Shown here: positions 2,800 to 25,560 of the stretch, piece after piece | How the letters are laid out: the number at the start of each line of letters is the position of its first letter | Position numbering within the stretch: the first letter of the stretch is position 1 | Assembly (NCBI RefSeq): GCF_032884065.1 | Contig: NC_088875.1 | Location: 49,464,971 to 49,528,970 of the forward strand | From: Artemia franciscana | Taxonomy: Eukaryota; Arthropoda; Branchiopoda; Anostraca; Artemiidae | Length of the DNA stretch: 64,000 nucleotides | Reading direction: 5' to 3' | Program-made: the position numbers and the translations under genes | Notes under the pieces: generated by a model | Told to the model about the DNA's origin: nothing | The model's database searches: none | The model's input: the letters and a program-made list of their open reading frames with translations, nothing else

Positions 2800-4900
2800 A
2801 ACAGCTTACAATGTAATACATTGTCCTTAATTTAAATAGCACTCAGTCCAAAAACAATAAAAAGACATCCTGGTATGTTCCCCCTAATGTAGCCTAATAA
2901 AACATTCAATTATAAGTTTCTGAAAAGTCAAGAGAAACTTATTTATGAGCCTAAATAACAAGTCGTAAACTTGAGTATAATAAACCTGTGTAATATTCAG
3001 ATCTTATCTAATTAGTAATCACTTCAAATCTAAAGGTTTATCGAAAATGCTGTATTTATAATGCACATCTTCAACCGACTAGATAATTGCGTTAGGAATG
3101 TATTTCTACCTAATGGAAAAATGCGTTTTTTTTTCGTTATTCAATCAAGTTGAAAATAACACACTTACCTATTTCCTGACTAACCTAAAGGTTTTATATA
3201 AGGAAAAAATTAATGAAAAAAAAAACATTTAATAAACCATATTACGCTGTGCTGTCCCATAAAAAGAAAAACTTCACTAAGACTAAAATGTGCCGTCACG
3301 CGCTGCGCTAAGATTCTTCATTAAGTTTGTGTTTACCAAACTATATTATGCGCTGCAAAACTGTGCATATACTAATAGAATAATTTAATTTCCTTTCAAC
3401 CTAAACAAAATAATACTATAGCAAAAATCTTACTGAAAAAAGCATGACTTGTGATTAGAAGTTAAAAGTAAAATTTTTATATGCTTATAATTTAGTTAAT
3501 TTATATGCTATTTAAAAAAAACATTTTTTTTATTTAAAAATAAGTAGCCTAAAGAACTTAATTCTCCTTAAGATTATAGATCAAAATTGTTTATAGGAAA
3601 CAAATTAATTGTAATACAAACCATCCCCTTGGTGTTATATTAATCCCTTAACCAACTCTGTCGGTTAAACATTAAAAAAACCTAATTAAACATAAATGCT
3701 ACTATTTTAAACTGTAGGCTATATTAAACTACATGCTTAATACATATGTAAGCATGTGTATAAATTTAAATATAATAATTTTCCTTCCCCGACAAAATTT
3801 TACAAAACAGAGTAGTTTAAATAATTCTTTGTCTGAAACTCGGCTGGAAAAGTATGATTTATGACAAATATTCTTTTAAGAAATAAAAAATAAAAAAATA
3901 AAAAATGGGACAGTAGTAAAATTTTTCGAAATTTATAATCTAATAATTTAACTTTTCCTAAATAATTATGGTACAACCTCTTATTAGTTATGAGACAATA
4001 TAAACTTATATTACAAAAGACTAATAGCCTACGACTTATTCCTTAAGTTGGGCTAAAATTCTACTAAATTTAAATTATAAATCAATATAAATTATAATTC
4101 AAAAGTTTTTTTTATTTGTTTTAACAACTAAGCTACTTAATTTTGAGCTGGAAGGAGTTCAAATGCAAAAGAACACTTAACTTGTCGAAAGTCAAACTAT
4201 TTTACCTCAATATGACACCCTAAGCGAATTTGTGCCAATTTTGGAATAGCTATGATTATTTCTCAGTGCATACAAAAAAAAGGCTGTGATCTTTGAAACA
4301 TAGTTACTAGGCCTTATAATCTTATAATATAATAATAATCCCTACTTTTAAACTCCAAACTACATTAACCCATCCATAATTAGATTTTAACCAATTAATT
4401 GGAAACATAAATCAAAACTTTAACAATAAAATAAGCCTACCCTTCTATTACACCTACATAATTAGTAATTTAAGCTTCAGGCCGTAACAAACAAATAAAT
4501 TATTTCATACTTTTATCAGATATGTGTTGTAAGAAAAATTTTCCTCTTGGTTAGCAAAATTTTAAATAGTTTTCGTTCTTAACTGTTTAAAATCATGAAG
4601 AAGTTTAACGGCGATTCTCTCAGAACGCAAGTGCTATCATTTTCTTCAATATCGAGGTATTTTTATAAACAATAGAATAACTTTAATGTAAATGTTGCAA
4701 ATGTCCATCCATCTCCCCCTAACCTCACGTTTAGTAGAGTAATGAACCTATAAGAGGTCTTGAGTTAACCCCATCCCATACCCAAAACAAAACATTTCAA
4801 GAGAGTCAATAATAAATTATTAGTAAGTCTCAAGTTGGTTCTTTAATTAATTGACAATATATATATTAAAATACCTAGTGATTATAACCTTAAAGTATTA
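2800..4900. other. AT-rich DNA without recognisable genes
   Basis: No ORF of note, RNA gene or clear repeat structure was seen on either strand. The sequence is very AT-rich, with many short A and T runs. Confidence 0.6.
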
Positions 4901-4904
4901 TGGT

Positions 4905-5350
4905 TTTATCTTCTAAAACACGCATCCGTGATTAATCTTGTGGTAAAAATTCCACATTTTTGGAGATAGGAGCTTGAAATTTTTGCAATAAGGTTTTCTG
5001 ATACGCCAAATGCAATGGTGTGATTTTACGTTAAGATTCTATGACTTCTAGGGAATGCTTTCCCCTATTCTCCAAAATAAGACAACTTTTCTTAGGCTTG
5101 TAACTTTTGATGACAAGGACTAAATCTAATGAAACTTATACGAAAAGAGTATTTGGAGAAAGGGCGGGTTTAATTTCTTATAAAGCAGTGTGGTCTAAGA
5201 AATTATTAATGAAACTTGTATATTTAGAATTAGATTGAAGATTCAATTCTTTTAAAGTGTCTTTCAGCATCAAATTCCATTTTTTTAAAGTTTCGTTACT
5301 ATTGAGCCAGATCGCTCTTTATCACAGTTTGTTACCACAAACTACTTAAT
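4905..5350 (+). repeat. Diverged copy of dispersed family R1
   Basis: The order cacgcatccgtgat, ttccacatttttggagatagg, gttaagattctatgacttctaggg, ttgtaacttttgatg, actattgagccagatcgctc matches the better preserved copies at 33.9-34.6, 55.7-56.6 and (inverted) 59.7-61.3 kb. The copy ends in a small hairpin at 5325-5344. It is non-coding and is the most diverged of the long copies. Confidence 0.8.
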
Positions 5351-5716
5351 TGTAAATTGATTTTATGAAAAAACACTACTTCCGTTCTCAGCTCCAATTT
5401 AGATTTGTTGATATTTTTAAATTAACTATTTTAATACTATTTCTTGATAACTATAAGGTTATTAGCCATTTAGATTAATCTATGCTCAGCAATTCAAATG
5501 ATCTTTAATCAATCTCATTACCACGCAATTCATTTTTAAAAAAATATTTATTCAAAAAATAATTTATTAAACATTAATTACAGATAAGAAATGATGTTCT
5601 TAACATTTTTGATGACCATGTGAATAAGTACCCATACACAAGATATCGTATAACATGGGATAATATTCAAACACGAAAATTCACTTCTAACTAATAACAA
5701 CGCTTGGAAAATATTC

Positions 5717-7588
5717 ATGAAGTTAGACCCTAAACCATTTGAAAAATTGTTCCAACAAGTTATAAGACTCGAGAAAAACACATTTGACCTGAAAGAATCA
5801 ATTTTTAAATTCTTAAGATCAGACAAGGGACTGCAAGCAAGCCAAAGCAACCACAAAGAGAAGAAAGATATACCATCCCCTACCTATCCCAAAGTCAAAA
5901 CAAAGAAAATAGTTGATGATTTTGATGCAAAAATGGCCGAAATTGATAGCTATAGGACTCGGAAAAGCCATTGAAAAAAGAAAAAAAAAGATCAATTAAC
6001 GAAAACCAAAACTCAGATACCGATAAAGAGACCCAAAACGTAATTAAACCAATGAAGACCCAACTTAGACAAAGAAAATTTTACGATGGACAATATGCAT
6101 TATTAAACGAATTGCCAACAGTATGGAATTTCTTCAAAGAACTATGGAATAGACCAAAACAAGCTAAGAAGGCTGAGAACAAACCCGTACAAGAAGAAAT
6201 AAATTTGTCTGAAATAAAGCCAACAGAAGTTGAAACGAGAGACATAATAAATATTTCCCCAAACACACAACAAACCGCTGCAATTGAAACCCAAACAACA
6301 AACATTGTATCTGACCTTGTAACACGAACAAATAAAATACCAGCGATAATAAGGGGTATAGAAAATATTGAAGTAGGATCAAATTCCATTAATGGTACCA
6401 GCAAACCGAAATACAAATTTAAATTTCAATACTTTTGAAGAATAATAAACGTTACAACGGAAGCTAACAAAATCAACACGACCTCCCATATTCCACATCT
6501 TACTTCTAATACCAAAGAAAACACAAACGAATTAATGGAAATCTCTAAAAGCACCTCAAAGAAATATGAAACGACTACCTTCTGGAAGTACGATATTCAG
6601 AACGAGGAAACCACAGCAGAAACTTAATTTACTCCAACAACAATCGAAACTGAACATACCCCAATAACAGAAGTGGAAGAAACATTCCCCACGTCAAACC
6701 CCACAACTACTGACACACAACCCATAGAGTTAGACACCTCAATGTCAGAAGTTACTACAGAAACTATTCCAGGTGTACTAATGCCAAATAACAACGATGA
6801 AATTTTAATAACAGTAAGACAACCATATCGATCAACTAGCTGGATATGGACGTCAACGAAGAGATGAAGAATACAAGTTAGATGGCAAATCCCTTTCGTC
6901 GACACCGATTATGGCAGAACACAATGCAAGGAAGGAGACAAAAAATGCCAAAATGAAAATCACTGGAGATAATGTTGGACTATAGACGGTAAAAAAAACT
7001 TGCGCACGACTGGCCATGGCTGATGAACCAGCAAAGAATGAACTAGAACCCCTCCCGGAATTAACCATGGAAAATGCTCATAAAATATCAGCTCATCAGG
7101 CATTCCTCATATTATATAGACAAAGGTTGGAAGCGTTATTTGAACTATTCAATACAGAAATACAAAAACTGAAACAAAGCACAACACGTATATTTGAAGT
7201 ATTTTTCCGGAGGAGTAAATATAAAAGGTCAACAAGTTTAATCCCAATAGTAGGGGAGCTTGCTTCTCGACTATTCGGTTTGTCAACCGAAGAAGATTTA
7301 AATATATTAAGAGATAATGTTAAAAGGCTCAACACAGCCATGAATACAACACTACATGTACAAAAAATACAAGCAAGTATCGCCAACTATCAAAAGGACG
7401 AAATTGAGGCCATATTCAAGAAAATCTCAAAAACAGTCAACACAATGAATTATTTAAAAAATGAAGTAGACAGAGTAATCTCTGATTCCAGCCTAACAAT
7501 GGTGTCACTCGATATTGTTATCATGTCTTTGTTGAACTTAGCTACTGATGTCAGTAAATTTGAATTCGCGTTATTTTGTAACATATAG
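5717..7588 (+). pseudogene. env: env fossil of an errantivirus-like LTR element
   Basis: This region encodes the amino-terminal part and fusion-peptide region of an envelope glycoprotein of the type carried by insect errantiviruses (Metaviridae) and related to baculovirus F proteins. The upstream part is Lys/Glu- and Thr/Ser-rich. At about 7200-7240 there is a basic furin-type cleavage site (RRSKYKR), followed by a hydrophobic fusion peptide (LIPIVGELASRLFGL) and a heptad-repeat coiled coil (EEDLNILRDNVKRLN onward). The region is broken, with several interruptions, and stops short of a full-length Env, which normally continues for a few hundred residues to a transmembrane anchor. A candidate Env carboxyl tail lies downstream at about 8620-8899. 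Identification rests on the cleavage site, fusion peptide and coiled-coil order. Confidence 0.75.
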
Positions 7589-7617
7589 ACCAGCCCCCTC
7601 CCCTCTATAAATTTCAG

Positions 7618-7751
7618 GGCCAAATCCCTCATTCACACCCCCTTGGAAATCCTCAAATATAGGACCAAATCTCTCATCCATACTCTTCTAGGAACTCTTA
7701 AATTCAGGACTAAATTTCTCAGTCACACCCCTTTAGTAAATTTCAATTAGA
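7618..7751. repeat. Three tandem copies of a ~45-bp unit
   Basis: Units start at about 7618, 7662 and 7707 and share the skeleton GGaCcAAATctCTCAttCAcaCccc followed by an AAAT-rich end. They are 70-80% alike by eye. They lie just after the env fossil and before the LTR-like region. Confidence 0.7.
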
Positions 7752-8053
7752 AAAAGGTTTGAATAAAATCATTTAGAATTTAACAGTTGCTAAATTTAAC
7801 AGTCTGCATAGTCCAACGCAGTTGGACTACGTGCATTTAGATAAGTTAAATGTTACTTAACAAGTTAAGTAACCAGTTATTCTGACCCCTGGGTTTTTCA
7901 ACTCAAAACCAAAAGGGAAATCCTTGCCATAAAAACAACTTTTGGATGCAGGACTAGTCACATTAATAAATATTACCAATAGAAGTGGAGGTCAACTTCC
8001 ACAGGTCACCAAGCCTGTCTGGCGAGTGTTTTTTAGAGAAATCGCGCGTTGGA

Positions 8054-8087
8054 TATATGAGCCCAACGCAAGGGCGAATAGTCAGTT
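8054..8087 (+). promoter_or_regulatory. Candidate core promoter (TATA plus Inr) of the LTR-like region
   Basis: TATATGA at 8054-8060 is followed 28 bases later by TCAGTT at 8082-8087, an arthropod initiator match. A purine-rich GGAGAGATTCG follows at about 8091-8101, where a downstream element could sit. An AATAAA lies about 100 bases further on, inside the 219-bp repeat. This is how U3-R boundaries look in many gypsy-type LTRs, but no second copy of this stretch exists in the window, so the assignment is tentative. Confidence 0.35.
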
Positions 8088-8125
8088 TTAAGGAGAGATT
8101 CGAATGCATTAGATCAATTGCTCAT

Positions 8126-8344
8126 GTTCACCTTTTCATGCAATAAGTCATTGAAGCTATTTTGTCAATAGTTGTATATTGTAAGTAAATAAACTTTATT
8201 GTATTTAATCATCTTCTGTCTATGTTTTAGGGCATCAGGTACAGTTCCTCTAGCCTTCAGGTACGGTCCCAAGGGAATCTATATTTGTTTCAGGAGACCT
8301 CGAACAACACTGAGATGGTTCTGTCTCCCAGGTTACTGGGGATT
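8126..8344 (+). repeat. 219-bp direct repeat, copy A (LTR-like)
   Basis: Begins gttcaccttttcatgcaata and ends ggttactggggatt. It contains AATAAA near the middle of its first half. It is matched almost exactly by 9042-9260. Confidence 0.9.
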
Positions 8345-8619
8345 GTGTGGTCGTACCCGCTGGCTGGATGTTTCGTCTTCTCTAGTCTACGTTATTCAGT
8401 CAGAAATGAATGATGATAGTAAGTAGTTGGTTCTATTTGGGATGTCACTTGGGTGATAGTTGTCTGGTTGAATCAGATGTGTTTCGGGCATTCTTCGGTG
8501 GTTGATAAATCATGATAGGTGTTTTGTAGTCTTTGACCATGACGTTTGTTGGCCAGCCCATTAGCTGTCATTTTAGCCAGCCCTTTGGCTGGCTAAAGAA
8601 AATGTCAATTATTAAAAAC

Positions 8620-8899
8620 TGGAAGAGCATTTAGACCAAGATCCAGTTAAAGGAGCAGGCAGTTACATTATAGAAGAGATAGCTCCAGGTTTCGAAGAAT
8701 ATATTATGAAAGAAGAAGCAGCAAGACGTCTAAAGAGTCCTGTTTTTGACAAAGAAGAAGATGAAAATGAAAAAAACAAACAAGATCATCCAGCCCCAAC
8801 CAGACCCAACCTGCTTATTTTGGCCCGACCTTTTGGGGTGGATTTGCTATAGGCCTGGGCCTCACTATGATCGGAGTGGTGTTGAGTAAAAGGAGATAA
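8620..8899 (+). pseudogene. Env carboxyl-terminal tail with membrane anchor (fossil)
   Basis: About 8620-8810 encodes an acidic, helical segment, then a Pro-rich stretch. About 8830-8887 encodes a hydrophobic Gly-rich membrane span (FAIGLGLTMIGVVL) followed directly by a short basic tail (SKRR) and a stop at 8897-8899. A single span plus a very short basic tail at the end of the last gene before a polypurine run fits the end of an errantivirus-like Env. The region is broken and detached from the env amino-terminal part at 5.7-7.6 kb. It could be the tail of a different membrane protein of the same element type. Confidence 0.5.
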
Positions 8900-9023
8900 G
8901 AAGAGTTGAACAGGGATTTTGTTAAATTGAGGTTGAAATATATGCGCATCCTGCAACCTTGATTGGTATTTAAGTCATTTACAGTTTTCAATTTATTTTT
9001 TTTAAGAATAAATTGACTAGGAC

Positions 9024-9041
9024 AAAAAAAAAAAAAAAAAA
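9024..9041 (+). other. A-tract in polypurine-tract position
   Basis: A run of 18 A is followed at once by the 219-bp repeat, giving an AAAAGTTCACC junction. Errantivirus LTRs commonly begin AGT after a purine run, which fits. A poly(A) tail of a retroposed transcript is the alternative: an AATAAA lies about 15 bases upstream. A similar A-run followed by GT occurs at 20012-20036. Confidence 0.5.
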
Positions 9042-9260
9042 GTTCACCTTTTCATGCAATAAGTCATTGAAGCTATTTTGTCAATAGTTGTATATTGTAA
9101 GTAAATAAACCTTATTGTATTTAATCATCTTCTGTCTATGTATTAGGGCATCAGGTACAGTTCCTCTAGCCTTCAGGTACGGTCCCAAGGGAATCTATAT
9201 TTGTTTCAGGAGACCTCGAACAACACTGAGATGGTTCTGTCTCCCAGGTTACTGGGGATT
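9042..9260 (+). repeat. 219-bp direct repeat, copy B (LTR-like)
   Basis: Near-identical to copy A at 8126-8344. It is followed by about 135 bp of unique sequence leading to a candidate primer-binding site at 9397, so it could also form part of the 5' terminal repeat of the gag-pol element downstream. Confidence 0.9.
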
Positions 9261-9396
9261 ATATACGAAGCCTTTTTATTTTATTAATAATTTAGCTCCC
9301 ATATCCACATTAAGCTATAAGCACCTCAACGCAAACCCCCCTTAAGATAAAATCACAACCCAAACCTATTATTTTACTAAACCACCCCGTAACATA

Positions 9397-9409
9397 TGGC
9401 GCGGCCGGG
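9397..9409 (+). other. Candidate primer-binding site of the gag-pol element
   Basis: The sequence TGGCGCGGCCGGG begins with the TGG expected for pairing to a tRNA CCA end and resembles the TGGCGC-type sites of gypsy-group elements. It sits about 310 bases before the gag start and just after CCCCGTAACA, a plausible LTR end. The tRNA is not identified. Confidence 0.4.
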
Positions 9410-9707
9410 AAAAGAAAGCAGCAAAAGGAACTGAAAGTACCTACGCAATAAATGCCTACTAACATAGACAAGTATGATTATTTACATTTTATTTTTTGAT
9501 TTTTAAGTGCAGTGCAATTTTACCTCGCTTTTTGAATTTTTAGGTGCAGTGCGATTTTATTTCTATTTTTGTATTTTTTTTTATATATAGGTATACCCCA
9601 TTCAAAAAATAATCAAAATCCTTAAGAAATTAAAATAAAACAGTAATAAAATTAAAAAATTTGGAGATTATTTTATACCGCATACTAAAAAAAAGACTAC
9701 AATAAAT

Positions 9708-10890
9708 ATGGACCAGGAACAAGATGAAATATTGAAAGCGCAACAAATTATCGCAACTTCGGTAGAAATTGCAAAATCATTACCAGAATATGAAGGAGAT
9801 ACGGACGTTGATCAATTCAACATCCATTTAGGACAATTTGTGGAAATGACAAAAATTGACCTAAAAGTATTGAAAAAATATGTTACTTTTAAGACTGAAA
9901 GGACAGGCGCTAACATTTCTAAAACAAATCGAAAACACGATAGGTACAGAAGCAACCTCAACAATTAACTCAATAGAATTATTGCAACAGGCCTTCCAGA
10001 AAAGATTCATTGACACAAGTTCATTGAATAAACTGAAACATGGCCTAGTTACTTTCGAACAGACCCAAAACGTTCGTGAGTACTTGCATAAGGTTAGAAT
10101 CGCAACAGAAGCGCGATACGGTCCAGGAGAAGGGGAATTATATGAAAAAATCATACTAAATGCATTTAAACAGGGACTCAACCCAAAGTTATACCGCCTT
10201 TTGATAGCTAAAAATATTGATAACCTAGAACTAGCAGTTCAGGAAATAGAAAGAGCCGTAGAAATTGATTCGATTGTCCTGCAGCATCAAAAACTGTCAA
10301 TAAATGCTATAGAAAACAAAGCCCCGATAAAGTCAAGAGATTCCTCTCCGCGATTTTTCTCCCGAGAATCATCGCCCAAACCTGTTCGAAATCAAATTCG
10401 AACCACCACACCTCCAAGACAAGTACATTTTGCCCCCAATAATCAATTAAGGGCACAAACTAACAATGAACCATTAAGGTGCTACACCTGTAACCGGGTA
10501 GGACATATCGCAAGAAATTGTTTCGCAAACAATAATTATCGCCCAAATATTAGGGGAACGGGTAACCGTTTGTCCAGGGGGACAAACTATAGTGGGTACG
10601 CCCCTACAGGCAATCGAGGGAACACCTTTGTAACAAGAAATAATTATCCCACCCAAAATCAAAATTTCCAACGCAATACGTATCAATATCGAGGAGGGTA
10701 TCGTGGAAGGACAAATCAACCCAGTAATAGTTGGAACAGAAATACAAGAGGAAGTTACATCAGCCGACGGCAGCCATATAATAGCTCCATCTCAAATAAT
10801 AACCAAGGAACCCAAAACAGAACAAATGAAAGTTCTACATCTAACATCTGGGAATCCCAGGGAAACGATATAAGCCCCCAAAATTCGTAG
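9708..10890 (+). pseudogene. gag: gag of a Ty3/gypsy-type LTR element (fossil)
   Basis: This encodes a Gag-like polyprotein: an acidic amino-terminal region, a helical capsid-like middle (about 9900-10300), then a Pro/Arg/Asn/Gln-rich nucleocapsid. The nucleocapsid has one CCHC zinc knuckle at 10480-10521 (CYTCNRVGHIARNC, spacing C-x2-C-x4-H-x4-C) followed by an Arg/Gly/Tyr/Asn-rich, probably nucleic-acid-binding tail. Gag would form the particle shell and bind the element RNA. The gene is broken, with about one break, but otherwise well preserved, so the copy is fairly young. It lies on the same strand as pol, 77 bases upstream. Confidence 0.85.
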
Positions 10891-10967
10891 GACCAAAATT
10901 TGGTGGCAAGATAATTTATAGGTCCCCTCCAGTAATAATACCATTTTTAAGTGCAAATAATAATAAT

Positions 10968-13900
10968 ATGATACCAATATTTGAAAATTTTAATGCAGGA
11001 AATATTTATTTCTCAGCCCTTATAGATTCAGGAGCAACCGTAAATGTGATAAATACATCCGTATTTAATAAATTACCAAATTATATTAAACGACGAATGA
11101 GCAATATCTGTCCCAATTTATCAAGCGTAACCGGGCACGACCTGGATGTAAAAGGCACCGTGTACCTAGCCTTGCGCAAGGATAACAAAAATTTCTATAC
11201 TCGATTTATAGTTTGTAAGAATTTTCCATACGAGGCAATAATAGGCGCAAATTTTTTAAAATCAATTGAAATATTATTAGATGTAGCAAATTCAAAGTTT
11301 ATCTACCCGACGGACACCATATCAATAATAAATAACATACAAGCAAACAAAGTAAGGGAGAATATAGGCAACATGAAAGAGTATAGAAACAAACAAATTC
11401 AAGAAATTTCTTATTTATGGAAAAAACTTGAAAAAATAGAAACTCCAGGAAAAAAACCAGCGGAGAATCTTCTAAATTCAATAAAAGAAGAAAATAACGA
11501 AAAATATTATGGATTTGTAGTGCGAAAAATTAAAATTCCCCCTAAATCAATGCAGAGGGTCCAAATATCACAAATGTTAGAACCAGTTAATGATAAAAAT
11601 GAAATTTGGGTAGCATCGCCGTCGGAAGATCTCCCGAAATATGTAGTTTGTGAAGAACAAATTATAAATTACGAAAAGGGAGAAGGTTACATTTGGGTAA
11701 CGAACACCCACGAAAATGACCTAATTACCCTAAGCAAAGGGACATGCTTAGTAGAGATACAAGTAGTATCGGAAACCGATATTAATAATTGGAAAAGTTC
11801 GGAAAAAAACTTAGTGAATAATATCAATGTTCACGTTGACAAGGAATATCCACTGACAAGATCTCAATTTCTTGAGAAGTTCGAACTAAGTCATATAACC
11901 GATGTGTCATTAAAACAAAAATTATGCGACTTATTATGGGAGTATAAAGATGTCTTTTCGACATCTGAAGATGACATAGGACTTATCCCATTTTATGAAC
12001 ATGCAATACAAACTATAGGGCCGCCAGTTGCGAAACAACCGTACCGAATTCCTTATAAACATAAGAAATGGCTAATAAACAAAATACATGAACTCGAAAA
12101 AAATCGAATCATAAAACCAAGCATAAGCCCATACTCTGCCCCCGTCATTCTAGTCCCGAAAAAGAATAACGACCTTAGATTAGTGGTAGATTATAGAGCT
12201 TTAAATAAACAGGTAGTGAGTGACAAATTTTCCCTACCTAGAATAGACGAAATTCTAGATTCAATATCAAGAAAAAATAAAATATTTACTTCCCTAGATT
12301 TGACACAAGGTTATCATCAAGTAAAAATAAAAGGGGCCGATATTTTTAAAACAGCTTTTTCAACTTCAGAATGTGGTTCTTAAGAGTACCGTTTGGACTA
12401 AAAACCAGTTCAAGTGCATTGTGTAGACCCCTCCTTCATTTACTAAGAAGCCTAAATAACATAATTCATTTTGTTGATGACGTCATAGCTATGGACAAAG
12501 ACGCGGAGGACCACTTAGTGACCCTAGCGAAAGTATTTGAGAAATTCAGAGAAGGCAATTTAAAATGTAGACCAGAAAAAGTAAATCTTTTTCAAACAAA
12601 ACTAAAATTTTTAGGAGTAGTTGTAACGCAAGGACAAATTTCCCCAGACCCTGAAAAAATTAAATCCGTTAAAAATATAAAGCCCCCCCAAACAATTAAA
12701 CAATTACGAGGAATCTTAGGATTAATGAGCTATTTCCGAAAATTTATAAGAAATTACGCACAAGTTGCAAAACCTTTAACGGACCTCACGAGAGGCAACC
12801 CACAAAAAATTGTGTGGTCTAAAACAGCTCAGAATGCATTAGATCATTTAAAAAAGGCTCTAACTTCAGAACCTATTTTATCATTACCCGACTTCCAAAC
12901 AGGACAATTCGTTGTTACAACGGATGCCTCAAACAAGGGAATTGGGGCGATCCTCTCCCAAATAATAAATGGGGAAGAAAGAGTAATAGCGTACGCTTCT
13001 CGCACCCTGACTTCAGGAGAAATTAATTATTCTGCTACACAGCTTGAATTATTATCGATCATCCACCATTTGGACAAGTTCAGACATTATTTGGTAGGCA
13101 GAAAATTTAAACTGCGTTCGGACCACAAAAGCCTGCAATATTTGCAAACTTTCAAAAAGCCAACGGGAATACTCGCGAGATGGATTTTGAAAATACAAGA
13201 CTTAGATTATGAATTTGAACATCTTAAGGGAAAACAAAATGCCCCATGTGACTATCTAAGTAGGTTTCCAGATAATACCCCAGTAGAAAATGAAAACGAA
13301 GAAGTCAACACAATAAAAGCAAAGTATGTTCCAAGAAAGAAGGGTTTAAAAATGAAGTCGGTTGAGAATAATTCGGTTGAAAAGCAACAGAAAAACAGCC
13401 CACTTTCCTTAAATTCTATAAAAATATATCAAAAGAAAGATAATACTTGTGCCGCTCTAATAGAATATTTCTTATATGATAAAGAGTTACCTGATGAAAT
13501 GAAATCTTTTAAAAAAGAAATTGATAACTATTATTATGATTTCGACGAAAAAATACTATGTAGGATAATGACAGATAGCGATAAAAGAAATCAAACTTCC
13601 ATTATACCAGTTTTACCCCAAATTTTGGAAAAACCCGCTTTTGAATTTTTTCATTCTGAAGTAGGAGGTCATTTGGGAATAGATAAGACATTCCATAGAT
13701 TAAAACAATACTTTTTCGTTACTTCAGCCTTAACAAAGTTAAAGAATTATGTTAATAATTGTGAAACCTGTAATTTAAGAAAAAATCCTCAAGTCTACCC
13801 GAATCCAACGATAGGAAGAACGCCAACGGCCCGGTTTCCATTTGACATAGTTTCTTTTGATTTATATGGTACAAGTGGAGGACTACCCACGTCTAATGAA

Positions 13901-14700
13901 GGACACACCTGTGTACTGTCAGTGATTGATCATTTTTCCGGTTTCACATTTGCTAAACCATTAAAAAATCAAAGCGCTTATGCGACTTCGAAAGCTCTTG
14001 CCAAAATATTTTTTAATTTCGGTATTCCTAATACAGTATTGAGCGACAATGGCCCTAATTTCGTATCGAAAGTAACTAAGGATTTAATGTCTCTCCTTCA
14101 AATAAATAAATTGGTATCGACCCCCTATCATCAACAGGCCAATGGGAAAATCGAGAACAGACACAAACTATTCTCTAATATTTTAGGTATTTATACGAAA
14201 GAAAATCGCAGGGATTGGCACGAAACCTTAACTTATTTAACAAATGTAATTAATACAGCTTATTCCCATGTCATTCGTGATAACCCATTCTACATTTTAT
14301 TCGGACGAGACTTCAGAATCCCTTATAATGAAATTACAGAGTCACGACAATATTATAATGATTCTCAAGATTATAAACAGGAATTTATCAATAGAATGAG
14401 GAAAACTTATAAACTTGTAAAACAAGAAATAGAAACATCAAAAAGAAAGCAAGAAGCAAAAAATATTCCTAACGTCAAGGGTAAACTCGATTTCTAAGTA
14501 GGAGATTGCGTTTACTTAAAAAACAAATCGGACGGCAAGAAACTTTCGGATTTATACCTAGGACCGTTAAGAATAATTAAGAGGTATGATAATAATGTTA
14601 CATTTAAACTATTAAAACCAAAACAGGAAAAACCTATAAAAACCCATGTTAGTCGTATAAAAAGGGCAAAATTCACAGAAACATGGACCCCTCAACCTTC
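10968..14700 (+). pseudogene. pol: pol of the Ty3/gypsy-type LTR element (fossil)
   Basis: Domains appear in Ty3/gypsy order. They are an aspartic protease (DSGATVNVI, about 11020-11050), then reverse transcriptase with LDLTQGYHQV at about 12295 and the FVDDVIAM catalytic motif at about 12468. RNase H follows (TTDASNKGIGAILSQ at about 12920). Integrase comes last, with a His/Cys zinc region (HLGIDKTFHRLK and CETC, about 13650-13785) and a D,D-35-E core (D in FDLYG, SDNGPNF at about 14045, E in NGKIENRHK at about 14150). An SH3-like tail (LGPLRIIKRYDNN, about 14550) ends near 14700. RT before integrase places it in Metaviridae. It carries about two breaks and is otherwise well preserved, so insertion is relatively recent. 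It makes element cDNA and integrates it. Confidence 0.92.
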
Positions 14701-15140
14701 AACATCACATACCTCGGAGGACAAAAATGAACCACCTCGCTCTAGACTAAGAGAGCTTAAACCTTTTAATTTTAAACGAGGGTATTTTGAAAACAGTAGT
14801 GATGAAGAAAAATTTAATGAATTTCTAACCATGACAAATATGGTTACCCCCCCCCCAAAAAAAAAAGTACCCCCGTCGCGCGGAGACGGAAAAAAAGCGA
14901 CTCATCTTCCAGTGAGGAGTCAGAAGAATTGGACTATACAATTTCTCCAAAGTCACAATTTTTTCCAGATAAAATGTCAACCCCTTACCCCCCAAAACGT
15001 TTCCCCGACAATTTGGTGAAACCTATTTCACCAATAGACAGACCTTTATCGTTACACGATGAATCAAATAAGGCTATACAGACTCCTGGGGACATTCACA
15101 AAGGGACAAAGAACCCCAAAAACAAACATTAAGAGAAGCA

Positions 15141-15761
15141 ATGGATATCATTAACTACCCAATTAAGACTAGACAGAGTACATTTTATACTAATCCATCT
15201 ACTGATGAGCAACAGTATCACGATATAACCGTCTCAAAGGCAAAAACAAAGGACTGGGTATCTTGGAAGGAAACCTTAATGCAAACAATTCCTCACCCCC
15301 CGGAAGACATGGCTTTCAAGCAGTGGAGGCACCCCAAGAAGACATTTGAATCCTCCCAAAGCTCCCAAGAATCGTTCAATTCTCCCGAGCCCAGAGATCA
15401 ACAGGACGAGTCAATCAATAAACCCTCCACTTCACGAGGAGAAGAAATTTACGAAGGTCAGGCTGGATCTACACCTAGATCTCAAACTTCTACTCCAAGA
15501 GAACCAGATACTAAATCTACAACTAGTTCCTCAGATACTGAGAGTGAATCAGGCACAAATGAGCCCAAAGATGTGGAAGGAACAAGACCACAGAGTGCAA
15601 CTGCCCAGGCTAAAAAGGCACAAATTAAAGGTCAAAAATTTCTTAAAAAACAATATAAAAAGTTTGACTTGATATCGCTAGCGAAGCCAAAGAAAAAAAA
15701 CCGAGTCTACCGAAGAGAAGGTAACAACAAGGTCAGGCCGAGTTGTCAAAAAACCAGATAA
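15141..15761 (+). CDS. Ser-rich, Lys-tailed ORF after pol (LTR-element ORF3)
   Basis: The ORF is 206 codons on the pol strand. The first ~65 residues are mixed and include WVSWKETLMQTIPHPPEDM. Residues about 68-150 are low-complexity, rich in Ser, Thr, Pro, Glu and Gln (TSSSDTESESGTNEP). The last ~50 residues are strongly basic (KKAQIKGQKFLKKQYKK, then KPKKKNRVYRR). An acidic/phosphorylatable middle with a basic end resembles viral phosphoprotein-like or nucleic-acid-binding accessory proteins in composition only. No family is recognised. It may be a separate gene or the end of a longer pol polyprotein, because 14700-15140 also has Pro/Ser-rich coding character. Confidence 0.45.
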   Translation: MDIINYPIKTRQSTFYTNPSTDEQQYHDITVSKAKTKDWVSWKETLMQTIPHPPEDMAFKQWRHPKKTFESSQSSQESFNSPEPRDQQDESINKPSTSRGEEIYEGQAGSTPRSQTSTPREPDTKSTTSSSDTESESGTNEPKDVEGTRPQSATAQAKKAQIKGQKFLKKQYKKFDLISLAKPKKKNRVYRREGNNKVRPSCQKTR

Positions 15762-16855
15762 ATTAGATTATTAATAAAAGAAAAATAAAAATCTATCAGT
15801 CCTGGATAAAATAAAGGAAAAAAAATAAAATAATCATTTTTTTGCTAATTGTCAATTAATTACGCTAAGAAACCATCCCGTAGTAAAAGTCATTAAAAGA
15901 AAGTACTTTTCAGGAAGTCTGAAAGACTCCAAGTGAAAAATTGGCCTATCTTATCAAAAAGTACTCATTATTCTAAGTAAGTTCCAAATCACATTTTTTT
16001 GCTAAGAGTAATCATAAGAGTGTAACTGCTTCATTAACATTTTTCTTAAAATAATTCCTTAAAGTTAAGGATTATCTTAAAGGTTAAAATTAGAACTGCC
16101 CCGTCGACTAAACGTTTCGCCAGATAAGTAGGCGAGACACTTCCTGATTCTTGAACTTTAATTTCTCTAATAATATAACCCGTAGCTTGGTTAACATATC
16201 TTACCACAAGTATAACTCAACTGTAACAAAACGTTAATTAGAAAGCTTATTAATATTCCTAAAGCTTACGCATAGACAGAAGATTTAGGTTTGGAAACAA
16301 AAATTACAATCGAAATTACAAGAAGACTACTATACACGAAACCGGAATAGAGAAAACAAGGCGCCCTTGCGGGTTGTAGTGACAAGGCTTGGCTTGTTTC
16401 AACTTGCTTGGCCACAAACAGCCTTAAAGGACTCCTTAAAAGCCACCTCTTCATTGTTACAGCCAGCGATAAAGTGAACAAATTAAAGTACATTGCAACA
16501 AACTGTAAATTGAATTTTACCAAACCCAAATTCCCCGTAAGCCAATAATCGGTAGTTGGAGCTGGTGCTGCTTACGAACTTCGTCTGAGTTCGTTGACTG
16601 CACTAATTCGATTTCCCAATTACTATTTATTCATTGCTTCAACTCATGTTAGACCAATCAATTCAACCCGTAATATATAATACTCGCACATTCTTTGAAT
16701 GAATTAGAATAAAAATCCATATACGTTGTGTTTCTCTGCTTATTACTTTAAGCATAATTCATAATTTAAGAAATATTCATTTTTTCTTGTTTCCAATATC
16801 TCCAAGTTATTAAGTCCCTTTTAACTTAATTTACTACCCCACTTACCACCAAAAT
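15762..16855 (+). other. 1.1-kb non-coding spacer between gag-pol and the accessory ORFs
   Basis: No ORF of note lies on the plus strand. The last ~250 bases look promoter- or LTR-like: an AT-rich TATA-like tract at about 16671-16682 and AATAAA at 16708-16713. The spacer is either an untranslated region inside one long element or contains a terminal repeat separating two elements. No second copy of it was found in the window. Confidence 0.4.
16671..16682 (+). promoter_or_regulatory. Possible TATA box upstream of the accessory cassette
   Basis: An AATATATAATAC-like tract lies about 180 bases upstream of the first accessory ORF at 16856. It is the only TATA-like element near that ORF, but in DNA this AT-rich such matches arise easily. 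Confidence 0.25.
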
Positions 16856-17443
16856 ATGTCCAAAGCTATTATAGATACAGAATTTATTTCAATTATCCAT
16901 GCTAAGGAAAACATTATATACGCGGCCGCGATCTTAGTTCAGGATGAGAATGGTAAAGAGGTGTATTCTGAAACATGGTACCTCAATTACGATTTAACAA
17001 AATTTGAACCTCATACATATAGATTTGGCTTAAAATTAGCGAATACTCCTAGATATCAACCCGCGAGAAGAGAAGTAAAAATAAAATATTCAAATAAAAA
17101 TAAGAAAGGAAAAAACTTGACAAGCCTTCAACTATTAATAATAAAACTACAACAAAAATTTAATATAAGCTATTGGTTTTGCAAGGGCCCAAATCAAACT
17201 GATCTACTTTTAATTGATAAATGTAGACCACCGAAAATTTGTTATAAGATCGAAGAAAATGAAAATTGTATTAAGTACGAAGGAATTCACCACCCCTTAG
17301 ATGAAATCCGACATTACGCCAAATTTATGTATGATCCAACGTCCCAAGATTACGCAGTAAGGGGAAATAACATTTTCTTAAAGAGAAAAAAATCGGTAGA
17401 AGCAAAAAAAGACGCATATAAAGGTAAATTAAAATCAAATTGA
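16856..17443 (+). CDS. Possible DEDDh-like exonuclease ORF (accessory ORF A)
   Basis: 195 codons, one uninterrupted frame, Lys-rich. Residues 4-11 read AIIDTEFI, the DxE motif I (D7, E9) typical of RNase-H-fold 3'-5' exonucleases, especially the Rv2179c-like/RNase T type, where IDTEF opens the protein. A second segment, CKGPNQTDLLLID (residues 109-121), could supply the middle Asp (D116). HHPLDEIRHYA (145-155) resembles motif III, with His followed by an acid. Spacing of H145 to the acid (D149 or E150) is close to, but not exactly, the usual H-x4-D, so activity is uncertain. The predicted role is RNA or DNA 3'-end trimming. DEDDy-type exonuclease ORFs are reported in some rotifer LTR elements, a precedent for capture. 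It is followed after 88 bases by ORF B. Confidence 0.5.
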   Translation: MSKAIIDTEFISIIHAKENIIYAAAILVQDENGKEVYSETWYLNYDLTKFEPHTYRFGLKLANTPRYQPARREVKIKYSNKNKKGKNLTSLQLLIIKLQQKFNISYWFCKGPNQTDLLLIDKCRPPKICYKIEENENCIKYEGIHHPLDEIRHYAKFMYDPTSQDYAVRGNNIFLKRKKSVEAKKDAYKGKLKSN

Positions 17444-17531
17444 AACACCAGAAGGACTCAAGCCGGAAAAAGGTAATTACTCATTAGATAATTAGCCTGC
17501 TTATACGTGTGACTAGTACTAACCGGGAAAA

Positions 17532-18092
17532 ATGCCGCGACGAAGAACCTTAAGTAATACCGATACCCTAGAACCCGACCAAGACCTGATGTTTGCGAGA
17601 CCAGAATTTTGGATTTCAAATAAAACCCAGAGTTTACCAAACCTCTCGGTAATAGACTATGAATTACGTGAAATAATCTTCGAATCCGCAACAACTAATG
17701 CAATAAGGAACTTGGAATATAATACCTTAAGTTCTTTATTGCAAGTTCCCATTATTTTTAAAGAGGATCTCATCATACACGGAATGATCATCCTATTATA
17801 CGGCTCATTTTCACTAGATATATTGAGCAAAGATTACGATTATAGGCACAAAAATGCTTCATACACCTTCGCAGCCCTACTCCAAGCAATGCCCCCCGCT
17901 GCGTATCCTTTAATAGCATCTTTAATACGCGAAAATTTTTGGCACATAGAACAAGAATCAGGTTTCAAAATACTATGGCCCTTAAAGTTTCTGGAATTAC
18001 TACTAGATGTGAATTACAAAATAGTGGAAAATGAAAATATATTGTTGGGAATATATGAACACTATTTAAGATACAGTGCCAATTTTGACTAA
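17532..18092 (+). CDS. Helical accessory protein, short paralogue (ORF B)
   Basis: 186 codons, intact, family not recognised. It is a clear paralogue of the amino-terminal half of ORF C (18134-19240): both begin with a basic RTLS motif and share KTQSLPNLS (residues 31-39 here). Both then have a helical domain with matching landmarks: ATxxAxRxLxYxTL, LLxVP/LLxIP, SF, YPLxAxLIxENFW, then a WxLxFL motif. It lacks the SOCS-box-like carboxyl region of ORF C. RTLS and KTQSLP resemble basophilic-kinase or 14-3-3 type sites, but this is only motif similarity. The likely role is the substrate-binding half of an adaptor or a decoy. It starts 88 bases after ORF A and ends 41 bases before ORF C. Confidence 0.65.
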   Translation: MPRRRTLSNTDTLEPDQDLMFARPEFWISNKTQSLPNLSVIDYELREIIFESATTNAIRNLEYNTLSSLLQVPIIFKEDLIIHGMIILLYGSFSLDILSKDYDYRHKNASYTFAALLQAMPPAAYPLIASLIRENFWHIEQESGFKILWPLKFLELLLDVNYKIVENENILLGIYEHYLRYSANFD

Positions 18093-18133
18093 CTAACCTG
18101 CTTATAACTAACAAAAATTGAAAAAGAAATATC

Positions 18134-19240
18134 ATGCCATTAAAAAGAACCTTAAGTTATCCCAACCTTACCAGATTGAGGAATGGGGAAAGTTTTGATA
18201 TAAAAACTAGAACCATAATAACTCCCCCTAGATACCTGAAAAACCGAACAGCTTGGTTTCCATGTAAAACCCAAAGTTTGCCAAATTTGTCCAAAATTGA
18301 ACACACATTATTAGACCAAGATTTAGAAAATGCTGTTAAGAAAGCAACAAGAGAATTACAATACCAAACTCTCTACCTCCTTCTCGAAATTCCTGTAAGC
18401 ATCACTAATAAGTTAATAACAAGAATTTTGTTCATCTTGTTATTTTGTTCATTTACACGCAAGATAAGAAAAGAAAACTTCAAATATAAACAGGAACTTG
18501 CGTCTCGGACTTTTACGATCTTACTTAACAAAATCCCCCTCAAAAAATACCCTCTAGTAGCAACATTGATCAGCGAAAATTTCTGGAGAGTCTATAATGA
18601 AAAAGGCTATACAATCATATGGGCTCTCAGATTTTTGTCAATATTGATAAAAAGAAATACAAATGTCTTGTTGGAAAAACCAAGCATACTAAACAAAATT
18701 TATAAAGACTACAAGAACCATTATTCAGCTAGTAATTTGATAGGAAACGGCCGAAAATTCCACATTTATGAACCAGACTACAATGAACTGAAACAAATAA
18801 TCTTTACCTGTAGCGAATGCGATGACAATTTTGCGTCAAAAATAGCGCCTCAAACAGATATAATCGTATTTGAAAAATTAATGAACTGTAGGGACCCCCT
18901 ATTTTTCCATAAAATATTAATTTTCAAAATAATCCATAACGTGTCAGGACCATTAACTTTAAAAGAACAGTGCAGAAAGCACGTCCGACTTCTTATGCGG
19001 AAAAGAAATATAAATTATACCCTGTGGAGCCTTCAAATACCTAAAAGTTTACAAAAATATCTAATGTTCGCGGAAGAAAATTCAGAAAATAAAGATCAAA
19101 TATCTGAATTAACCTTTTGGTCAGCTCATATTCCAAGATCAAAAGATTTTTTAACATATTTAGGTGGGCCAATTTTCAATGTGCAAAATAATTTCGACAT
19201 CAACTGTGGAACAAAACTGTCTACTTTACAAAAATTTTAA
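18134..19240 (+). CDS. SOCS-box-like adaptor protein, long paralogue (ORF C)
   Basis: 368 codons, intact. Residues 1-195 are paralogous to ORF B (RTLS, KTQSLPNLS at 45-53, the helical domain with YPLVATLISENFW at 139-151). Residues about 270-311 look like a SOCS box: PLTLKEQCRKHV (273-284) fits the BC-box pattern (S/T/P)LxxxCxxx(V/L/I), and LQIPKSLQKYL (300-310) fits the Cul5-box region (LPxP-like, with Gln for the first Pro). In known proteins this box recruits Elongin B/C and Cullin-5 to form a ubiquitin ligase, the strategy used by lentiviral Vif. By analogy the amino-terminal domain would choose the target. The middle (200-265) has CSECDD and no recognised fold. A cellular origin (an ASB-like or other SOCS-box host gene) is possible. 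Confidence 0.65.
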   Translation: MPLKRTLSYPNLTRLRNGESFDIKTRTIITPPRYLKNRTAWFPCKTQSLPNLSKIEHTLLDQDLENAVKKATRELQYQTLYLLLEIPVSITNKLITRILFILLFCSFTRKIRKENFKYKQELASRTFTILLNKIPLKKYPLVATLISENFWRVYNEKGYTIIWALRFLSILIKRNTNVLLEKPSILNKIYKDYKNHYSASNLIGNGRKFHIYEPDYNELKQIIFTCSECDDNFASKIAPQTDIIVFEKLMNCRDPLFFHKILIFKIIHNVSGPLTLKEQCRKHVRLLMRKRNINYTLWSLQIPKSLQKYLMFAEENSENKDQISELTFWSAHIPRSKDFLTYLGGPIFNVQNNFDINCGTKLSTLQKF

Positions 19241-19330
19241 ACCTCTGAGTAACCAAACAGCTAATCCCGCAAAATTATCTATGAAAACATGTCTAACTCC
19301 ACCCAATGATTATTAATATAACCCAATTTA

Positions 19331-19342
19331 ATTTTTTTTTAG
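19331..19342 (+). promoter_or_regulatory. Candidate splice acceptor before the 2H phosphoesterase ORF
   Basis: An uninterrupted run of nine T is followed by AG (attttttttt|ag at 19331-19342), with CTAAC at about 19294 as a possible branch site. It lies 30 bases before the ATG at 19372. Errantivirus and retrovirus downstream genes are known to be expressed from spliced RNAs, so a subgenomic message starting here is plausible. Confidence 0.4.
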
Positions 19343-19371
19343 AAATTGGACTTGTCTAAAGATTTGAAGTA

Positions 19372-20005
19372 ATGGAATCTCGACCGAATTACTTCCTCGC
19401 AATCCAAGTTAAAAACCCTCAGATAAGGATGAATGCTTCCTTAATGCAAAAACATGTAATTGAAACAAACCCTATGTTAACAAAAGCCTTAATCAAACAA
19501 AACTCTTTCCATCTAACGTTAAAAGTATTGCATCTGAAAAATAATACTGAAATTGAACATGTAAAAAGTGCTTTCGTCCAAACCATAGCAAAATATAGAC
19601 AAAATTTTACAAATGAAAAACTTTATCTCGATTTTCAAGGCATCGGGGATTTCTTTGAGCAAATTATATATGCAAAATTAAAGAACGAAGAGGTAGTTAA
19701 AACGCGCTTAAATCCAATTATAGAAGAAATCTCTAAAGAAATTACCAAAAGCGGAGTACAAATTGTAAATCAAGAAAACTGGAAGCCACATTTAACGTTA
19801 GTTGACCTAAGAAAAGTAAAAAAGCTAAGGAAAGAGGCACGAAAACTTCACCCCTCCTTATCTTCCAATTTTAAGAACATGAAATTTGGAAGAGAACTTG
19901 TAAACGGGTTACAATTACTATCAATTTTCGGACCTAAAAGCCAAGAAAACTATTACGAGATAATAGCAGAAGTAACATTTGAACAAAACACCCCTAAATG
20001 CAACT

Positions 20006-20007
<2 letters not shown>
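19372..20007 (+). CDS. 2H phosphoesterase, AKAP7-like (ORF D)
   Basis: 211 codons, intact, a normal length for a single 2H domain. The amino terminus NYFLAIQVKNPQI (residues 6-18) matches the opening strand of the AKAP7 NLS-type domain (YFxAIxxxNPxI). The two catalytic H-x-T-x motifs are both present: HLTL at 47-50 and, after W137-KP, HLTL at 140-143, at about the usual spacing. Family members cleave 2',5'- or cyclic phosphodiester bonds. Relatives in coronaviruses (ns2), toroviruses and rotaviruses (VP3 carboxyl domain) degrade 2-5A to block RNase L, and phage Acb1 enzymes cleave cyclic nucleotide signals. In an arthropod a cGAS-like second messenger or an RNA end would be a candidate substrate. 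It is the last ORF before the A-run at 20012. Confidence 0.8.

Positions 20008-20011
<4 letters not shown>

Positions 20012-20036
<25 letters not shown>
20012..20036 (+). other. Run of 25 A after the last accessory ORF
   Basis: The run begins 5 bases after the stop of ORF D and is followed by GTAAAAACG. As at 9024-9041, the A-run/AGT junction is where the polypurine tract meets the 3' LTR in errantiviruses. A retroposed poly(A) tail is less likely because no AATAAA precedes it within 30 bases. Confidence 0.5.
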
Positions 20037-20418
20037 GTAAAAACGTTCCAGGAACAGGAAAGAGAACGAAACAGGAAATATATGGCGGTAAGGTAATGAT
20101 TTTTCAAAATAAATTACGCTTACCAAAACTAACATTTCAAAAAAAAATATAACCTCCGTATAACTATCTTAATCCATATACTTATAGTAAGATAAATATG
20201 TTTAAAATTACCAAAATCGCTGGACCTGTGAGAACTTTACAAACCATTATAAATAAGTGTAATAATATATCCCACACCAAAAGTCTAAACTTAACACTTA
20301 GCCTACTGACCCCTTATAATATTAATATATACATTCAATAAAATTAGATTGGCTAAAAGAAAAAAAAAGCGGCGGAGCTAAAGAGGTAACCATTGAACAT
20401 TAGTTGGAGAATCGGAGT
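20037..20418 (+). other. Candidate 3' LTR, cut by an assembly gap
   Basis: About 380 bases of AT-rich non-coding sequence lie between the A-run and the gap. It has an AATAAA at about 20338-20343. If the A-run is a polypurine tract, this should be the start of the 3' terminal repeat, but no matching 5' copy was found upstream of the primer-binding site. The assignment is therefore unproven. Confidence 0.3.
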
Positions 20419-20518: not shown

Positions 20519-21390
20519 CTCGCCGCTTAAGCCTGTAATTCGGTTCTGACTTTATCTTACTTTTATCCGTCACTACATCAGTGAAAGTAGCAAAATCATC
20601 TGATGTTTCAAATAATAGCACTTCTACGAACTTTCTAACAATGTTTTGGTGAGATACAAATATACTATCAATCAAGAGTCGCGGACGTTGGAGTTACCCT
20701 TGTGCGTATTCGGACTATAGGCAGGTAACCATATGACATACAGTTTTGAAGAAATAAGAGATTTTTTATTTTTTAACGATAGTAGATCCATATTAAAATC
20801 CCCAAGCATTATTACCGGGTACTGATGACACTTCAACTTTGACAAAAGCTTTTCTAGTTCATCCATAAATATTTCCGTATCACCTGACGGGCTTTGATAT
20901 ACCAACACCATTAGAATTTCCTGATGATTTAATTTTACCTTGAGACAGAATGACTCAAATATTCCTTCAACACGAATATTAAAATCAGGTATTAGCGAAT
21001 AATCAAGTCCTTGTCACACATAATACGCTAGACCACCTTTCCTTAGCTTTTCACAGTTTAATACTTCTAACGAGAAACCTGTAATATCAAGCATTTTCTT
21101 ATCCATACTCTCTGTAAGGAACGTTTCTGTCAGCGCTAGAACATCAAATTGATTATTTCTACTAAAAACTTCAGATATTTCATCATATGCTGTCTGTAAT
21201 GACTGACAATTTAAGTGACCAACCCTTAAGTCCGACTTATTTACCTTTTCCGAGCACTCACTTACATATCTGCATGATATAATATCTACCAATAATTCAC
21301 TCTGTTCTTTGTCATCTTCACCTAGCGTTGTGTTTATCAAAGAATCTAGGCACAGAGGATTTTTCTCAAACTGTTCTAGTCGATTCATCT
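20519..21390 (-). pseudogene. LINE endonuclease fragment (start of ORF2)
   Basis: On the minus strand, reading from 21388, the sequence encodes the start of an APE-type endonuclease domain. LRVGHLNCQSL is followed by FDVLALTETFL (catalytic Glu), then GGLAYYV, and then, in another frame, LVYQSPSGDTEIF and VIMLGDFNMDL (the GDFN motif). There are at least two interruptions, one near 21014 and one near 20672, and the copy is cut by the gap at 20518. It differs in sequence from the adjacent LINE at 21.5-25.5 kb (there LQEHLL and IGDLN), so it is a different family. Confidence 0.85.
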
Positions 21391-21582
21391 GTATAACGCA
21401 CTAAATGAACTAATTAATTAATCACTGAAACAATGCAATTACTCCCTGTCTTGTTACATTACTCGTTGAGAAGGATCGGGCAATAATAATAATAATAATT
21501 TATTTGTTACCCGCTTGTTTTGACAAATTAAGTGGAGTAAAAACATTAAGGAAAGAAAAACGAAATAACACAAACAATACAA

Positions 21583-25495: not shown

Positions 25496-25560
25496 GGGTG
25501 GTCCTAAAATGCAAGATGATTGTTTTCTAGACGTGAGAACTACATAAAATAATTATCAGC

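What the first reader, a model, noticed from the sequence alone, without database searches (positions are those of the whole stretch)
16856..20036. Four-ORF accessory cassette behind gag-pol: possible counter-defence island on an LTR element
Seen: four intact, intronless, same-strand ORFs with gaps of 88, 41 and 131 bases, following gag-pol on the same strand and ending in an A-run in polypurine position. Motifs suggest a DEDDh-like exonuclease, a paralogous pair (one with a SOCS-box-like end) and a 2H phosphoesterase. Known: viruses use each of these activities against host nucleic-acid sensing or restriction. Inference: the set is an immune-antagonist or host-interaction module carried by the element. 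I know of no described LTR element with this combination.
Basis: partly seen in the sequence, partly recalled or inferred. Interest (0 to 1): 0.88.

Follow-up and report, generated by a model that had tools for sequence, protein, structure and literature searches.

The report
Counter-defence cassette in giant shrimp retroelement
In what is very likely a brine shrimp genome, a 21-kilobase virus-like retroelement carries four extra genes between its polymerase and a likely envelope gene, kept under purifying selection across many copies; two are predicted to hijack the host's protein-destruction machinery and two likely cut nucleic acids, a set that would help the element evade host defences.

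Summary
The observation largely holds; the element's boundaries were misread. The genome search (39 of 363 candidates scored, so a lower bound) found 38 further cassette loci. All 8 loci that I followed to both ends are LTR-bounded elements of about 21 kb: LTR, gag-pol, A-B-C-D, an env-like region, LTR. The cassette therefore lies inside the element, and the A-run is not its polypurine tract. The window copy is damaged: its B lost about 650 bp, while 10 of 20 copies fetched encode a 359-369 aa B, and the two tested have a SOCS box.

B and C are SOCS-box paralogues. D is an AKAP7-type 2H phosphoesterase with both HxT motifs. A is predicted to have a DEDD-exonuclease fold, nearest Rv2179c, with Glu at the last acidic position. 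All four are under purifying selection (omega in frame 0.11-0.41; wrong frames 0.73-1.27).

Likely mechanism, inferred and untested: host antagonism, by Elongin-Cullin 5 recruitment (B, C) and removal of sensed nucleic acids or signalling nucleotides (A, D). My paper searches found no LTR element with this set. The host is very probably Artemia franciscana.

The parts
16856..17443 (+). ORF A, 195 aa here (193-226 in other copies passing the filter): predicted DEDD-type 3'-5' exonuclease fold; conserved D7-x-E9, D116, H145-x4-E150
   Evidence: no Pfam or PDB sequence match
17532..18092 (+). ORF B, truncated in this copy to 186 aa; other copies 359-369 aa with a SOCS box (2 of 2 tested)
18134..19240 (+). 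ORF C, 368 aa, paralogue of B, SOCS box at residues 273-311
18950..19066 (+). SOCS box of C: BC box TLKEQCRKHV and Cullin-box-like LQIPKSLQKYL
   Evidence: the Cullin-box consensus is recalled, not from a call
19372..20007 (+). ORF D, 211 aa, 2H phosphoesterase of the AKAP7 type with HxT motifs SFHLT and KPHLT
20010..20036 (+). A-run after D; not the polypurine tract
9880..10890 (+). gag (Retrotrans_gag, CCHC zinc knuckle)
10968..14497 (+). pol: protease, RT, RNase H, integrase; split into two frames in this copy
7577..9394 (+). LTR (TGTAACATATAGACC ... CCCCGTAACA), interrupted here by a 219-bp duplication and inserted sequence at 8345-9041; 0.91-1.01 kb in other copies
9397..9409 (+). primer-binding-site-like TGGCGCGGCCGGG two bases after the LTR
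   Evidence: the tRNA was not identified
2802..7576 (+). Sequence that lies 3' of D in other copies, with the truncated env-like region (about 5300-7576), joined here directly to the LTR

Best explanation
The four ORFs are accessory genes inside a roughly 21-kb, LTR-bounded Ty3/gypsy-type element with a likely env gene, and they likely act as a host-antagonism module, in which B and C are predicted to recruit the Elongin BC-Cullin 5 ubiquitin ligase and A and D would remove nucleic acids or signalling nucleotides. Shown: position inside LTRs, repeated order, B/C paralogy, SOCS boxes, both 2H motifs of D, and purifying selection on each ORF. Predicted: the exonuclease fold of A. Inferred: the divergent N-terminal part of B and of C selects a host restriction factor, and the SOCS box hands it to the ligase for ubiquitylation, as HIV-1 Vif does with APOBEC3. 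Inferred: A trims 3' ends of cytosolic DNA or RNA that would be sensed, or of host small RNAs. Inferred: D hydrolyses 2'-5' or cyclic nucleotide messengers, or RNA ends. Spliced subgenomic mRNAs are a possible route to separate proteins, hinted at by splice-like sites.
Against: No activity, binding partner, target or transcript was shown. The SOCS box of C in L015 scores 20.9, below the cut-off of 23.5. The models are weak: C pLDDT 51, unusable; A pLDDT 69, with three of five models below 46. A has no sequence-profile match and has Glu where DEDDh enzymes have the last Asp; one copy (L010) has Asp for E9 and one homologue (P0011) has Lys there. Domain types alone fit other roles. gag and pol omega was not measured for comparison.
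Confidence: 0.55

Rival explanations
1. Replication-helper module: the four proteins serve the element's own cycle, for example RNA export, end processing of its RNA or cDNA, or regulation of Gag and Env levels, and do not target host defence.
For: A DEDD fold and a 2H enzyme both suit end processing. Rodriguez et al. suggest 3'-end processing of retrotransposon RNA for the bdelloid DEDDy ORF3 (PMC5408684, passages). Cer1 encodes an extra protein needed for nuclear export of its genomic RNA (PMC10309623, title and start of abstract in a listing).
Against: Two SOCS-box paralogues point to protein degradation through a host ligase rather than RNA handling.
Confidence: 0.28
2. Domesticated or host-serving: the genes are kept because they protect the host, for example by limiting related elements.
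For: Purifying selection on each ORF could in principle come from the host.
Against: Copies are dispersed and LTR-bounded, with LTR K2P 0.007-0.024 in the 7 measured, so the family was active rather recently; no single conserved host locus was seen among the 39 scored.
Confidence: 0.08
3. Passenger genes: captured sequence carried along without function.
For: Many copies have one or more broken ORFs: only 6 of 20 fetched have all four intact.
Against: In-frame omega 0.11-0.41 with wrong-frame controls at 0.73-1.27.
Confidence: 0.05
4. A host gene cluster that merely sits next to a retroelement in this window.
For: None.
Against: 38 further loci with the same order, linked to pol and, where followed, to LTRs.
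Confidence: 0.01

Closest known systems
Bdelloid rotifer Vesta/Juno LTR retrotransposons with a DEDDy-exonuclease ORF3 (PMC5408684, passages)
   Same: Env-related or env-less LTR elements with an extra DnaQ-like ORF after pol, one acidic residue changed
   Different: One ORF3 at most per element in the passages read (DEDDy and GDSL can share one ORF3); no SOCS-box or 2H genes mentioned; authors report no significant departure from neutrality, whereas here omega is 0.11-0.41
HIV-1 Vif (PMC3843819, abstract)
   Same: A retro-element protein with a SOCS-like BC box predicted to recruit Elongin BC and Cullin 5
   Different: No sequence relation was found; B and C have a canonical-looking SOCS box and come as a paralogous pair; target unknown
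AKAP7/AKAP18 2H domain (PDB 5jj2, 2vfk) and viral 2H proteins such as coronavirus NS2a (weak Pfam match, E 0.04)
   Same: Full-length 2H domain with both HxT motifs
   Different: D is the 2H domain alone, on a retroelement; substrate unknown
Rv2179c / RNase AS and other DEDDh exonucleases (TREX1/2, ERI1, oligoribonuclease)
   Different: Low identity, no sequence-profile match, Glu at the fourth acidic position, a low-confidence stretch at residues 56-81
TART-A counter-defence in Drosophila (PMC7785250, abstract)
   Same: A retroelement that appears to act against host defence using captured host sequence
   Different: Proposed to act through piRNAs against nxf2, not through encoded accessory proteins

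Membership tests
Ty3/gypsy-type LTR element (Metaviridae) | LTRs with TG...CA ends and short target-site duplication | tested here: met
   8 of 8 followed have both LTRs; matching 4-bp flanks in 7 of 8; the eighth lies in tandem with another element
Ty3/gypsy-type LTR element (Metaviridae) | gag, then PR-RT-RH-IN in that order | tested here: met
   Pfam order in the window
Ty3/gypsy-type LTR element (Metaviridae) | RT groups with Ty3/gypsy in a tree | not tested
   no labelled reference set on hand
Errantivirus-like, env-bearing element | Env gene between pol and 3' LTR | tested here: inconclusive
   Long ORF region with hydrophobic N-terminus, KYKR before a fusion-peptide-like stretch and a near-C-terminal hydrophobic segment, but no Pfam match
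SOCS-box proteins | PF07525 above curated cut-off | tested here: met
   Window C 25.3, B of L015 34.4 and of L013 32.7 against 23.5; C of L015 only 20.9
SOCS-box proteins | BC box | tested here: met
   10 of 10 B and 15 of 15 C intact copies; consensus recalled
SOCS-box proteins | Binding to Elongin B/C and Cullin 5 | not testable with these tools
   needs binding assays
2H phosphoesterases, AKAP7 type | PF10469 above cut-off | tested here: met
   127.5 against 24.4 bits
2H phosphoesterases, AKAP7 type | Two HxS/T motifs | tested here: met
   14 of 14 intact copies and the window
2H phosphoesterases, AKAP7 type | Phosphodiesterase activity | not testable with these tools
   needs enzyme assays
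DEDDh exonucleases | DnaQ-like fold | tested here: met
   Predicted model only:
DEDDh exonucleases | D-x-E, D, H-x4-D motifs | tested here: not met
   Last position is Glu in every aligned homologue that reaches it; so filed as DEDD-like fold, not as DEDDh
DEDDh exonucleases | Sequence-profile match | tested here: not met
   No Pfam, NCBIfam or PDB sequence match of weight
HIV-1 Vif | Sequence homology to Vif | tested here: inconclusive
   No PDB chain, Vif included, matched C or the B/C profile at E 10 or better; Vif is used only as a functional analogy

The most novel reading that the evidence does not exclude
An invertebrate Ty3/gypsy element has independently evolved a complex-retrovirus-style accessory genome: two Cullin 5-recruiting, Vif-like adaptors aimed at different host restriction factors, plus an exonuclease and a 2H phosphoesterase that erase the nucleic acid and second-messenger signals of crustacean innate sensing.
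Probability: 0.4. Interest if true: 0.93.

Novelty: new variant of a known kind. Interest (0 to 1): 0.8.

Why it matters
Accessory genes that turn host ubiquitin ligases on host defences are a hallmark of lentiviruses; LTR retrotransposons are usually seen as gag-pol, sometimes with env. A constrained, multi-copy SOCS-box pair on a crustacean Ty3/gypsy-type element would show the same strategy in a separate lineage. It would also give a direct handle on unknown crustacean antiretroviral factors, because whatever B and C bind is a candidate restriction factor. And it would extend counter-defence by transposable elements from an RNA-based case such as TART-A (PMC7785250, abstract) to protein degradation.

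Tried and rejected
Rejected: the A-run as polypurine tract and an element ending after D. Rejected: a host gene cluster. Considered and dropped: that window 8345-9041 is a retrocopied spliced env mRNA (I wrote so in the notes); its first 210 bp match element sequence near the 3' LTR in the opposite orientation and the rest matches nothing fetched, and its frames have no Pfam or PDB match.

Led nowhere: viral-contig scans with A, an A homologue, C and D gave no relative. The model of C was too poor to search. PDB searches with C and the B/C profile gave nothing. NCBIfam added only a 2H match for D below its cut-off (41.3 against 65.7) and PHROGs nothing of weight. Paper searches: SOCS box with LTR retrotransposon, errantivirus with accessory genes, 2H with endogenous retroviruses, Artemia elements, extra ORFs and counter-defence: I saw no description of this gene set in the listings; only open-licence PMC papers are held, and ranked listings were read, not all hits. 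PMC12440569 (Troyka; abstract) concerns 3-bp duplications and CG ends, unlike here. Term searches inside PMC12992720 and PMC8220671 gave nothing of use. Left open because the genome search machine did not answer: an intron-bearing host AKAP7 gene, and the origin of window 8556-9020. Families that the structure search did not list are not thereby excluded.

Rows dropped before counts: one search took only ORFs passing start-motif and length filters, leaving of 20 copies 11 A, 10 B, 15 C and 14 D. LTR K2P and element length come from 7 of 8 pairs; C1a (98.2% identity) failed the end-motif match there. C21 and C16 were not followed to both LTRs. One search aligned 19 copies for A, 18 for B, 18 for C and 19 for D of 20, those whose start pattern was found.
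Full report
What is there. The window carries four same-strand ORFs, A to D, downstream of a Ty3/gypsy-type gag-pol, at the stated places and spacings. It lies in a 1.27-Gb assembly. A close relative of full-length B is named as an Artemia franciscana protein, on a contig of 64,441,807 bases, exactly the length of contig C7 of this assembly, so the host is very likely the brine shrimp.

Copies. A DNA search of the window's own genome with 16856-20036 gave 76 matches; 39 of 363 candidates were scored, so copy counts are lower bounds. By place the matches form the window copy and 38 further loci; in 37 of the 38 at least part of the A/B half lies next to the C/D half. Where both halves are seen in full they are about 650 bp further apart than here, because the window copy lost the end of B. 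In 20 loci fetched, ORFs passing start and length filters number 11 for A, 10 for B, 15 for C and 14 for D; six loci have all four.

Element borders. I followed eight loci to both ends. Each has a 5' LTR of 0.9-1.0 kb beginning TGTAACATATAGACC, TGGCGCGG two bases after its end, gag and the start of pol, the cassette at the expected distance, about 8 kb more, and a 3' LTR. The rest of pol was not fetched for these eight. GGGAAAGGGGATA stands directly before the 3' LTR in six, one base off in C12, and not in C4b. Lengths are 20,987 to 21,765 bp and LTR pairs differ by K2P 0.007-0.024 in the seven measured; C1a has 98.2% LTR identity. Seven of eight have identical 4-bp flanks. C12 is preceded by the 3' end of another element, so tandem elements sharing an LTR exist; C4b, although its outer flanks match, is rearranged at its 3' side. 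gag-pol sequence was seen in 10 of 10 5' pieces, and 351-base pieces from 20 other loci hit the end of pol in 19 (one of these, L084, falls just past the pol ORF; L068 gave no match): together 29 of 30. The cassette is therefore an internal part of the element.

Downstream of D. In the four copies examined for ORFs, 3 kb or more without an ORF of 80 aa on the element strand is followed by an env-like region, open for 727 aa in one piece of C2381 but broken in others. It shows a hydrophobic N-terminus (C1a), KYKR directly before a fusion-peptide-like stretch, and a strongly hydrophobic segment near the C-terminus (C2381). Pfam has no match, so Env is an inference from position and features.

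ORFs B and C. They are 38% identical over 200 columns. Across intact copies B-C identity is 79% in a KTQSLPNLS-type motif, 46% in the SOCS region, 38-39% in between and 29% and 24% at the ends. SOCS-box scores: window C 25.3, B of L015 34.4, B of L013 32.7, C of L015 20.9, cut-off 23.5. The BC box is present in 10 of 10 B and 15 of 15 C, followed by an L-x-[IL]-P stretch. The model of C is poor (pLDDT 51). Homologue searches returned 4 proteins with C and 19 with the B/C alignment; the named one is Artemia, and I saw no clearly separate host family among them.

ORF D. It matches the full AKAP7 2H domain and AKAP7/AKAP18 chains (E 7.6e-27 and 1.4e-25); SFHLT and KPHLT are kept in 14 of 14 intact copies and in the window.

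Selection. Nei-Gojobori omega among intact copies: A 0.108, B 0.283, C 0.320, D 0.406; the same alignments in wrong frames give 0.73-1.27; bootstrap 5-95% ranges (30 replicates) stay below 0.45. With the window copy added, A is 0.133, C 0.320, D 0.391. Taking only intact copies may lower omega somewhat. gag and pol were not measured.

Expression. A T-rich run ending in AG lies about 30 bases before the D start in 19 of 19 copies aligned and in the window; AG-GTAA lies about 60 bases before B in 17 of 18 copies and the window, and before C in 18 of 18 (lost in the window). These look like splice sites; nothing shows that they are used. B and C share a CCTGCTTATA stretch upstream, in keeping with tandem duplication.

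Mechanism. Two ligase adaptors, a nuclease-like fold and a 2H enzyme are most simply read as host antagonism, by analogy with Vif (PMC3843819, abstract) and viral 2H enzymes (recalled; weak NS2A match). The main rival is a replication-helper role. I put the first at 0.55 and the second at 0.28.

Novelty. LTR elements with extra ORFs are known; bdelloid Vesta and Juno carry DEDDy or GDSL ORF3s, reported without significant departure from neutrality (PMC5408684, passages). I found no paper with SOCS-box genes on an LTR retrotransposon, within an open-licence library. I rate it a new variant of a known kind.

Noticed in passing
window 2800-20418: Between two 100-base N gaps the contig runs env-like region, LTR, gag-pol, cassette: the order of a tandem pair sharing one LTR, a one-LTR circle, or an assembly join. 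A tandem pair is seen at another locus (C12, L044/L060).
   Followed up: partly
window 8126-9260: A 219-bp LTR stretch occurs twice (99%), around an inverted 210-bp element fragment and about 490 bp of foreign sequence ending in AATAAA and an A-run directly before the repeat; possibly a host mRNA picked up by template switching.
   Followed up: partly
window 17430-17531 and 18093-18133; L009-L028: Splice-like signals near the starts of B, C and D, and a C-terminal extension of A in two copies (226 aa in L013 and L027), hint at spliced mRNAs.
   Followed up: partly
window 21014-25500, minus strand: ORFs that look like endonuclease and reverse transcriptase of a decayed non-LTR retrotransposon (my reading of the translations, no search).
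   Followed up: no
window 31467-61336: Dense set of direct and inverted repeats 70-93% alike, unrelated to the element.
   Followed up: no
proteins P0008, P0011-P0014: A-like proteins at about 50-60% identity on short public contigs suggest more distant relatives of ORF A; their surroundings are unknown.
   Followed up: no
C4b, L046/L064: The 5' flank plus LTR recurs after the element's 3' end at 99%, as if a solo-LTR allele and the full element stood side by side.
   Followed up: no
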